From Nostoc sp. LPT (GTDB lineage Bacteria; Cyanobacteriota; Cyanobacteriia; Cyanobacteriales; Nostocaceae), in assembly GCF_017115165.1 (NCBI RefSeq), contig NZ_JABXKF010000024.1:62015-126014 (forward strand): 64,000 bases of DNA, in the 5' to 3' direction. Under the pieces are notes generated by a model, which made no database searches, was not told the origin of the DNA, and saw only the letters and a list, made by a program, of their open reading frames with translations. Position 1 is the stretch's first letter. Every line of letters starts with the position of its first letter. Shown here piece after piece: positions 2,520 through 24,149 of the stretch. The position numbers were made by a program, and so were the translations under genes.

Positions 2520-2699
2520 TAATTGGAACAATAGGGAGTAGGGAATGGAGAGTTGGGAGAAACGTGATTAATTGCGTCTGTACTAGGGGAAAATTTTTAT
2601 TAGACCTGTTGCAAAAATCCTTGAATCACCCTTCCCCAACCCTCCCCGATGTGTTGGGGAGGGGTCAAGATTTCAAGTTTCCCCCCAATATATCGGGGA

Positions 2700-2740
2700 G
2701 CCACTGCGTTGCGGAGGTTCCCTCCGTTGTAGCAAGTGGC
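2700..2740 (+). repeat. 41-bp hairpin repeat, copy 1 (GCCACTGCGTTGCGGAGGTTCCCTCCGTTGTAGCAAGTGGC)
   Basis: Near-palindrome; related to 10953..10993 and to the arms at 55223..55352; sits inside a larger ccccaaccc...ggattaaggggggt repeat. Confidence 0.8.
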
Positions 2741-2860
2741 GTGGGATTAAGGGGGGTATATTCGACTTATGCAAGAGGTCTATTGTCTACATCCTCTTGA
2801 GCAGATTTGATTATTCGGTTAAATCTAGTAAATAGAATAATTTTCGCTTTTAAATTAATT

Positions 2861-10699: not shown

Positions 10700-11253
10700 T
10701 TATTCCATTAAATCATCTGTCGCAGCCTCACCCGGATAAAAGCGATCGCTCAGAATTTCCTCAAAAGGATATAAACATTGGTTGGGAAAAGTTGAGAGTG
10801 GCAGATTTGTTTCTCCTGATGCTAAATCCTTACCATTTTGATATGATTCCTGGAGTGCTTCTTCAATGTAAGGTTTCAGGCTAGGATTCTCGCTCAACAA
10901 ATTGAGAATTTCTCGTCGTTGTACTCTAATTGTTGCTAACCCTTCGGGTTCGCCAGTCGCTACAACGGGGGGAACCCCCGCAACGCGCTGGCTCACCAAC
11001 TACGGCTGCGTTGCTTTGGTTGATATTCCCATTTGAGTAAATGTCCAATTAACACACTCAGACGATTTCTTAATTCTTGGCGTTCCTTTCTTCCCAAAGA
11101 TTCAATTTCCTCAATTAAATTGGGCAGGTCAAGCTGGTTCCATTGGTGATGAGGCAGAAGGTTAGCCTGTTGTTGAGTCCAAGTGTAAAAGTCATTTTCG
11201 TAGAGGTTTGGCATCAGGTTTACCGCAGGTTGTCCGGTTTGTGGTATCTGCAT
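10700..11253 (-). pseudogene. DUF29 family gene split by insertion of a 57-bp repeat
   Basis: N-terminal half (MPNLYENDFYTWTQQQANLLPHHQWNQLDLPNLIEEIESLGRKERQELRNRLSVLIGHLLKWEYQPKQRSRSW) ends in TGA; the remainder (LATIRVQRREILNLLSENPSLKPYIEEAL...) resumes after the insert at about 10940..10996. Confidence 0.8.
10953..10993 (-). repeat. 41-bp hairpin repeat, copy 2, inside the DUF29 gene
   Basis: Minus strand GCCAGCGCGTTGCGGGGGTTCCCCCCGTTGTAGCGACTGGC; same length and layout as 2700..2740. Confidence 0.82.
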
Positions 11254-22529: not shown

Positions 22530-24149
22530 ATGGCTCAAACTTTTTACGTAAATTCAGTATCAGGCAGCAATACCAACCCAGGTACTCAACAAGCCCCCTT
22601 CAAAACTATTACGCAAGCCCTCAAGGTAGCTACTGTTAATACCAAGATTCAACTAGCAAATGGTAATTACAATGCTGCTAGCGGTGAAGTCTTTCCGTTA
22701 ACGATTCCGTCTGGCGTAACAGTTGTGGGTAATGAAACCAATAAAGGTAATGGCATTTTGATTGAAGGAAGTGGTAGCTATCTGAGCCGTACTTTTGCTG
22801 GTCAGAATGTCACTTTCGTGCTGCTAGATAAAGCTGAACTGCGGGGAGTGACTGTAACAAATTTGGCTAGCCGTGGTAGTGGTGTCTGGATTGAATCAAC
22901 TGCCCCTACTGTTGCTAATAGCACCTTCATCAACAATAAGCGGGAGGGAGTATTTGCTACAGGCGATGCTAATCCAGTTGTTTTAGGTAATGTGTTCAGT
23001 GAGAATGCAGCCAATGGAATTGCGATCGCTAAAAATTCTAAAGGTCAAATTGAAAATAATACCTACTTCAAAACAGGTTTTGGCATTGCCATTAGTGATA
23101 CTGCATCACCCATCCTTCGAGATAACAGAATTTATGAAAACCGTTCTGGGATTGTCATCTCTGGTAGTGCGCGTCCCGTATTACGTAATAATGTTAGTGA
23201 AAATAATACTGATGATGGGATTACAGTAATTGGAACTGCTCTACCGGATATCGGCAGTACCAATAATCCAGGGGGCAATACTCTACGCAATAACGGTAAA
23301 TTTGATTTGCAAAATGTTAGTTCCAACAAGCTGATTTCTTTAGGAAATAAAATAGATGCGTCTAAAGTTACCGGAAACATAGAGTTTGCAGATAGTTCGG
23401 TTCCAACCCCAACCCCAACTCCAACTCCAACCCCAATTCCAACTCCAACACCAACACCAACCCCAACTCCAACCCCAACTCCAACACCAACACCAACCCC
23501 AACTCCAACTCCAACACCAACACCAACCCCAACTCCAACCCCAACACCAACCCCAACTCCAACACCCACTATTGAATTAACCGATATTGCGAATCATTGG
23601 GCAGGTGGGTTTATTCGGGAATTAGTCAAATTGGGAATAGTTAATGGTTTTCCCGATCGCACATTTAAACCCGATGCGACGATGACACGGGCACAATACG
23701 CGGCAATACTGGTAAAAGCTTTCAACCCACAACCAAGCCGTGCAGCGATCAAATTCAAAGATGTACCAGCAGATTTCTGGGCATCCAAGGTAATTCAGCA
23801 AGCATATCAAGGTTTATTTCTCTCTGGTTTTCCCGACAATACCTTTAGTCCCAACAAAAATATCCAGCGCGTACAAGTGATTGTTTCTTTAGTAAATGGA
23901 CTGGGGTTATCAAGTGATGGTACGGCAACTATCAAAGTTTTCGATGATCAAGCCAAGATTCCTGAATATGCCAAGGATGAGGTAGTAAAAGCTATAGACA
24001 AGGAAATTATCGTCAATTACCCAAACCTGAAACAACTCAATCCTACCCGCGATGCTACACGTGCTGAAGTAGCGGCGATCGTGTATCAAGCTTTGGTAGA
24101 TGCTGGTCGTGTAGCAGCGATCAATTCGTCTTATATAGTAACTGCTTGA
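22530..24149 (+). CDS. DUF1565/right-handed parallel beta-helix protein with Pro-Thr linker and C-terminal SLH domains
   Basis: [27 protein letters not shown]; (PT)n linker; [50 protein letters not shown]. Confidence 0.9.
23401..23571 (+). repeat. ccaac[ct] hexamer microsatellite coding the (PT)n linker
   Basis: Direct inspection; gives spurious long ORFs in other frames. Confidence 0.95.

What the first reader, a model, noticed from the sequence alone, without database searches (positions are those of the whole stretch)
2700..2740. 41-bp repeat family shows compensatory stem changes
Copies at 2700..2740 (GCCACTGCGTTGCGGAGGTTCCCTCCGTTGTAGCAAGTGGC) and 10953..10993 minus (GCCAGCGCGTTGCGGGGGTTCCCCCCGTTGTAGCGACTGGC) have equal length. 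They differ at paired positions: outer stem GCCAC/GTGGC versus GCCAG/CTGGC, inner GGAGG/CCTCC versus GGGGG/CCCCC. Paired substitutions suggest selection on, or a mobilisation mechanism using, the folded form. REP-like elements mobilised by RAYT/TnpA(REP) proteins would be a precedent.
Basis: partly seen in the sequence, partly recalled or inferred. Interest (0 to 1): 0.7.

Follow-up and report, generated by a model that had tools for sequence, protein, structure and literature searches.

The report
Tiny jumping hairpin in Nostoc
The two repeats are copies of a 45-letter hairpin that inserts itself cleanly all over the genomes of Nostoc-type cyanobacteria, even in frame inside genes, and keeps its fold while its letters change; it resembles small dispersed repeats described in 2008, and the enzyme that moves it is not the REP transposase that was suggested.

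Summary
Both copies (window 2698-2742 + and 10950-10994 -) are full 45-nt members of a large family: about 96 matches in this Nostoc-group genome, 12-113 in each of 22 relatives, almost confined to Nostocales. Covariation is strong. In 97 distinct ungapped units 96.2% of cells pair, and the six highest mutual-information column pairs are all predicted base pairs. In 114 units found with a pattern that left pair 18-26 free, that pair was GC 79, AT 35, mismatched 0.

It is mobile. Orthologous and paralogous empty sites show clean insertions of 45 nt (56 nt at DUF29) with no target-site duplication, after GG(G/T) or (A/G)AG. One epimerase gene occurs empty, +45 and +90 (nested), always in frame. 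The copy at 2700 sits in a MITE; the one at 10953 splits a DUF29 gene.

The RAYT part is not supported. RAYTs of this genus carry their own GTAG hairpins, units are not near them, and units are abundant in genomes without a RAYT above cut-off.

Closest known: small dispersed repeats of Nostoc (Elhai 2008, SDR4-6; paper not held, identity untested). Most likely a non-autonomous element whose folded single strand is the substrate of an unidentified enzyme.

The parts
2698..2742 (+). 45-nt hairpin unit, copy 1 (GAGCCACTGCGTTGCGGAGGTTCCCTCCGTTGTAGCAAGTGGCGT)
   Evidence: CM R1 75.6 bits, E 1.3e-18; empty versions of the same site, CGGG|GGGATTAAGGGGGG, occur 11 times in this genome
2601..2782 (.). 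miniature inverted-repeat transposon carrying copy 1 (terminal inverted repeats 2601-2619 and 2764-2782, 84% complementary)
   Evidence: a second copy with the same unit is L021
10950..10994 (-). 45-nt hairpin unit, copy 2 (GAGCCAGCGCGTTGCGGGGGTTCCCCCCGTTGTAGCGACTGGCGA)
   Evidence: CM R1 72.2 bits, E 1.2e-17
10939..10949 (-). 11-nt tail ACCCGAAGGGT; with the unit it makes the 56-nt insertion
   Evidence: absent with the unit from 17 of 20 aligned orthologous loci
10996..11214 (-). 5' half of the interrupted DUF29 gene (73 codons, then TGA from the insertion)
   Evidence: matches Pfam DUF29 positions 1-70 of 138
10700..10938 (-). 3' half of the interrupted DUF29 gene
   Evidence: matches Pfam DUF29 positions 72-138 of 138

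Best explanation
The repeats are copies of a non-autonomous, very small mobile element of Nostocales: a 44-47-nt (mostly 45-nt) hairpin with an outer stem, an asymmetric conserved internal loop and a GC-rich inner stem. Shown: it inserts as an exact unit, without target-site duplication, mostly 3' of GG(G/T) or (A/G)AG; it goes into heptad repeats, MITEs, GTAG-REPs, copies of itself and, in frame, protein genes; the fold is conserved while the sequence changes. Inferred: the folded single strand is the substrate of an enzyme acting in trans, so that only copies that fold are propagated, which creates the covariation. A single-stranded DNA hairpin joined to the target by a HUH-type nuclease is my first choice for the chemistry (about 0.4), an RNA intermediate second (about 0.3). 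The enzyme is not identified.
For: Covariation: 15 pairs, 96.2% of cells paired in 97 distinct units versus 79.9% in shuffles; score 0.388 versus a shuffle maximum of 0.138; the top six mutual-information pairs are all predicted pairs. Unbiased pair 18-26: 79 GC, 35 AT, 0 mismatched. Ten or more combinations of four covarying pairs, which fits recurrent paired changes. Exact insertions: DUF29 empty in 17 of 20 orthologous loci; epimerase empty, +45, +90; MITE with 11 empty copies in the genome; GTAG-REP sites. Nesting after unit position 25 (inverted) or 16 (same direction). Target bias at -3 to -1. Copy number varies 12-113 among relatives. A nested copy in G061 has lost much of its pairing while the reading frame stays (L318), which suggests that structure is kept in the moving pool and not at every site.
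Against: No mobilising enzyme and no intermediate were found. Wobble G.T and A.C mismatches are equally rare once pair 14-30 is left out (10 versus 11), so DNA and RNA cannot be separated. The DUF29 insertion is identical in three genomes whose flanks differ by 7-13%, which is more conservation than a freely decaying resident copy should show.
Confidence: 0.8

Rival explanations
1. A REP/REPIN mobilised by a RAYT (TnpA-REP).
For: RAYT-model hits in all 53 genus genomes, 35 above cut-off, including one intact gene in this genome at C15:147259-147678; hairpin architecture; no target duplication.
Against: RAYTs carry their own GTAG hairpins; one weak unit in 111 kb of RAYT/Y1 loci; copy number independent of RAYT presence; no GTAG/CGTC tag; the unit is inserted into the RAYT-linked GTAG-REP.
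Confidence: 0.06
2. The same element, but moved through an RNA intermediate (the proposal I recall for cyanobacterial SDRs): a folded RNA is inserted and reverse transcribed.
For: Conserved G.U pair 14-30 in 88 of 97 units on the written strand only; conserved asymmetric internal loop.
Against: No excess of G.T over A.C at the other pairs; no reverse transcriptase linked or tested.
Confidence: 0.27
3. A structural RNA or terminator-like element kept at each site by host selection; copies arise by ordinary duplication.
For: Strong fold; identical DUF29 unit in three genomes.
Against: Empty versus filled orthologous sites, nested copies, insertions inside genes in both orientations; no Rfam family at gathering threshold in the window.
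Confidence: 0.05
4. Mutational symmetrisation: template switching in quasi-palindromes makes both arms match without any selection or function.
For: Would give paired changes in hairpins.
Against: The internal loop GTT/TTGTA stays asymmetric in the GCGTTGC subfamily and pair 14-30 stays G.T; symmetrisation would remove both. It also does not explain exact 45-nt insertions.
Confidence: 0.05
5. Passive hitch-hiking: the unit is part of MITEs and spreads only with them.
For: Copy 1 and L021 lie in the same MITE at the same site.
Against: Most units are outside that MITE: heptads, genes, GTAG-REPs; exact 45-nt insertion in the epimerase with no MITE.
Confidence: 0.03

Closest known systems
Small dispersed repeats SDR4/SDR5/SDR6 of Nostoc punctiforme (Elhai et al. 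2008, Genome Res 18:1484, doi 10.1101/gr.074336.107)
   Same: Host group, dispersal in heptad repeats and minitransposons, nesting in copies of itself, common fold with compensatory mutations (recalled from the abstract; the paper is not held)
   Different: The insertion unit here is 44-47 nt, not 21-27 nt as recalled (positions 9-36 are 28 nt). SDR5 inserts in HIP1 (PMC4390886); none of 93 units here does.
REP/REPIN elements with RAYT transposases (PMC3116915; GTAG/CGTC families, PMC3733652)
   Same: Short hairpin, dispersed, non-autonomous
   Different: No GTAG/CGTC tag, no RAYT linkage or dependence
Rickettsia palindromic elements (RPE; reviewed in PMC10969869)
   Same: Palindromic, inserted in frame in unrelated protein genes
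   Different: About 150 bp, other hosts, no sequence relation tested
MITEs (Nezha and others)
   Same: Non-autonomous, small
   Different: No target duplication and no transposase-type terminal repeats of a parent element found; 45 nt

Membership tests
Cyanobacterial SDR (SDR4/SDR6 type) | compensatory mutations supporting a common fold | tested here: met
Cyanobacterial SDR (SDR4/SDR6 type) | confined to a subgroup of cyanobacteria | tested here: met
   24 of 194 phylum genomes, all listed hits in the same order
Cyanobacterial SDR (SDR4/SDR6 type) | embedded in heptad repeats, minitransposons and copies of itself | tested here: met
Cyanobacterial SDR (SDR4/SDR6 type) | published consensus sequence | not testable with these tools
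   paper not held; no held paper contains the core strings
Cyanobacterial SDR (SDR4/SDR6 type) | unit length 21-27 nt | tested here: not met
   44-47 nt insertions; the published length, recalled from memory, may refer to the core only
SDR5 | insertion within HIP1 (GCG|ATCGC) | tested here: not met
   0 of 93 joined flanks contain HIP1 at the site
REP/REPIN with RAYT | GTAG or CGTC tag at the 5' side of the hairpin | tested here: not met
   2 of 93 with GTAG in the last six flank bases
REP/REPIN with RAYT | copies flank the RAYT gene | tested here: not met
REP/REPIN with RAYT | depends on a RAYT in the genome | tested here: not met
   abundant without a RAYT above cut-off, e.g. G010 with 66 and G005 with 59
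DDE-transposase MITE | target-site duplication | tested here: not met
   epimerase, MITE and DUF29 empty sites

The most novel reading that the evidence does not exclude
A 45-nt mobile element, 15 codons long and open in five of six frames, that adds in-frame peptides to unrelated genes of Nostocales (epimerase, NRPS, PKS, histidine kinase, HflX-like GTPase, TnpB), can stack by inserting into itself, and moves without target duplication by an enzyme not yet known: a much smaller cyanobacterial parallel of Rickettsia palindromic elements.
Probability: 0.35. Interest if true: 0.65.

Novelty: new member of a known kind. Interest (0 to 1): 0.45.

Why it matters
It would be among the smallest mobile elements with clean orthologous empty, single and nested states, so its unit and target preference can now be tested directly. 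Its fold, not its sequence, is what persists, which points to the folded strand as substrate. In-frame insertion shows a route by which such elements add peptides to proteins. Ruling out the RAYT leaves open which enzyme moves it.

Tried and rejected
RAYT linkage, by model search, locus scan, flanking repeats and copy-number comparison: rejected. Rfam: no family at gathering threshold in the window. Phage carriage: no match. Plasmids: a few cyanobacterial ones only. SDR5/HIP1: rejected. Wobble asymmetry to tell RNA from DNA: inconclusive. In-frame bias inside ORFs: 10 of 11 places versus 49 of 82 elsewhere, p = 0.05, weak and biased by how ORFs were found. The Elhai paper and the published SDR consensus could not be obtained. 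R-scape was not available; shuffles, slid partners, an unbiased pattern and mutual information were used instead.

Full report
WHAT IS THERE. Both repeats exist as quoted and are far beyond chance: two core matches in the window against 0.04 expected. Alignment of genome copies and empty sites shows that the unit is 45 nt, GAG[C/G]CA..TG[G/C]CG[T/A], at 2698-2742 (+) and 10950-10994 (-). The structure has an outer stem (3-10 with 35-43, bulged A38 in most copies), an internal loop (GTT / TTGTA type) and an inner stem (14-20 with 24-30) closed by a TTY loop.

THE FAMILY. A covariance model from 11 copies finds 96 matches (E<=0.001) in the window's genome and 12-113 in each of 22 same-genus genomes, but only three each in 2 of 16 genomes from other families of the order. 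In 194 genomes of the phylum 24 have matches, all listed ones in the same order and most in the same family. Named hosts are Nostoc, Scytonema, Fischerella, Calothrix, Brasilonema, Rivularia and others, and one Chroococcidiopsidaceae MAG; plasmid copies include Gloeocapsa and Chroococcidiopsis. G066 shares a coordinate with Nostoc sp. UHCC 0926 plasmid NZ_CP117772, so the genus is most likely Nostoc. Within one genome there are several subfamilies with different inner parts (GCGTTGCGGRGG.., GCGGTCTTGGGG.., GCGTTGGGCGGG..) and the same architecture.

COVARIATION. In the first 11 copies six pairs change on both sides, 98.2% of cells pair and no shuffle reaches the score. In 97 distinct ungapped units from this genome and from public genomes, 96.2% of cells pair (shuffles 79.9%), the score is 0.388 (shuffle maximum 0.138; slid partners at most 0.093), and the six column pairs with the highest corrected mutual information are all predicted pairs: 4-42, 18-26, 7-39, 8-37, 17-27, 15-29. 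Part of this set was selected by sequence only: 114 units were found with a pattern in which positions 18 and 26 were both free, and these were GC 79, AT 35, nothing else; the outer stem, not part of the pattern, is 89-100% paired with CG/GC/AT/TA and TA/CG changes. Ten of the 16 simple combinations of four covarying pairs occur, plus rarer ones, which fits recurrent paired changes.

MOBILITY. (a) DUF29: copy 2 splits a DUF29 gene between model positions 70 and 72. Of 20 aligned orthologous loci, counting the window's own, 17 lack the insert and read AGTTGG|TTAGC; three are filled. The insertion is 56 nt: unit plus ACCCGAAGGGT. (b) MITE: copy 1 sits inside a 182-bp element with terminal inverted repeats. 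Eleven places in the genome have the same site unfilled (GGG|GGGATTAAGG) and filled ones have exactly 45 extra bases. (c) Epimerase: 18 aligned relatives are empty, others have +45, and four (this genome, G001, G012, G061) have +90 with a second unit inverted inside the first; all preserve the frame and none shows a target duplication. (d) Nesting after unit position 25 (inverted) or 16 (same direction). Flanks are biased at -3 to -1 towards GGG, GGT, GAG and AAG.

GENES. The 45-nt unit is open in five of six frames by inspection. Thirty-two spanning ORF cases of 200 codons or more were seen among 209 units, some counting nested units twice, among them NRPS, PKS, histidine kinase, HflX-like GTPase, TnpB and the epimerase. 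PDB homologues align on either side of the inserted residues in the histidine kinase and directly after them in the NRPS. The plasmid PKS and DUF3987 cases are annotated as single uninterrupted genes. Whether the peptides are tolerated or useful is not known.

MECHANISM. Shown: exact insertion, no duplication, short 5' target preference, fold conserved. Inferred: the folded single strand is recognised by a trans-acting enzyme. A HUH-type reaction would give insertion without duplication 3' of a short motif; an RNA route is also possible. The RAYT is not supported: RAYT-model hits are present, but those inspected are flanked by GTAG hairpins of their own, units are at background near them, and units are just as frequent in genomes without a RAYT above cut-off. 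The IS200/IS605 TnpA of this genome (L136) has no unit in its locus either.

KNOWN KIND. From memory, Elhai et al. 2008 described eight SDR families in Nostoc punctiforme and relatives, three of which share a fold supported by compensatory mutations, and some nested in themselves. The paper is not held; other papers cite it and mention SDR5 in HIP1. This family fits that description except for length and, for SDR5, target. I therefore treat it as a member of that kind without claiming identity with a named SDR.

Noticed in passing
window 10939-10994; L141, L142: The 56-nt insertion in DUF29 is identical in three genomes although the flanking gene differs by 7-13%: independent insertion at the same site, exchange, or constraint.
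   Followed up: partly
L137 1405-2181; L138 414-1295: Two RAYT-like genes of this genome are each cut by a heptad-repeat segment with an ORF of four-helix type; in L137 it is a 23S rRNA intervening-sequence protein (PF05635).
   Followed up: partly
L281, L287, L310 1000-2450: RAYT genes flanked by GTAG hairpins TGTAGGTTGGGTTGAGGAACGAAACCCAACA or GTTTGTAGTAAGGGCTTCAGCCC; the 45-nt unit often inserts into the first of these.
   Followed up: partly
L025, L200, L201, L207, L210, L260: Composite of a palindrome GACGCGATTAAT|CGCGTC with the unit in its centre, several times in frame in genes; 40 pattern matches to the unfilled palindrome (both strands counted) in fetched DNA.
   Followed up: no
window 10939-10949 and L059, L073, L090, L096: Units ending in CGA are followed by a small hairpin ACCCGAAGGG(G)T and preceded by GGT/AGT, as if unit and tail moved together.
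   Followed up: no
window 23367-23605: Array of CCAACNCCAAC-type repeats (proline/threonine codons if translated).
   Followed up: no
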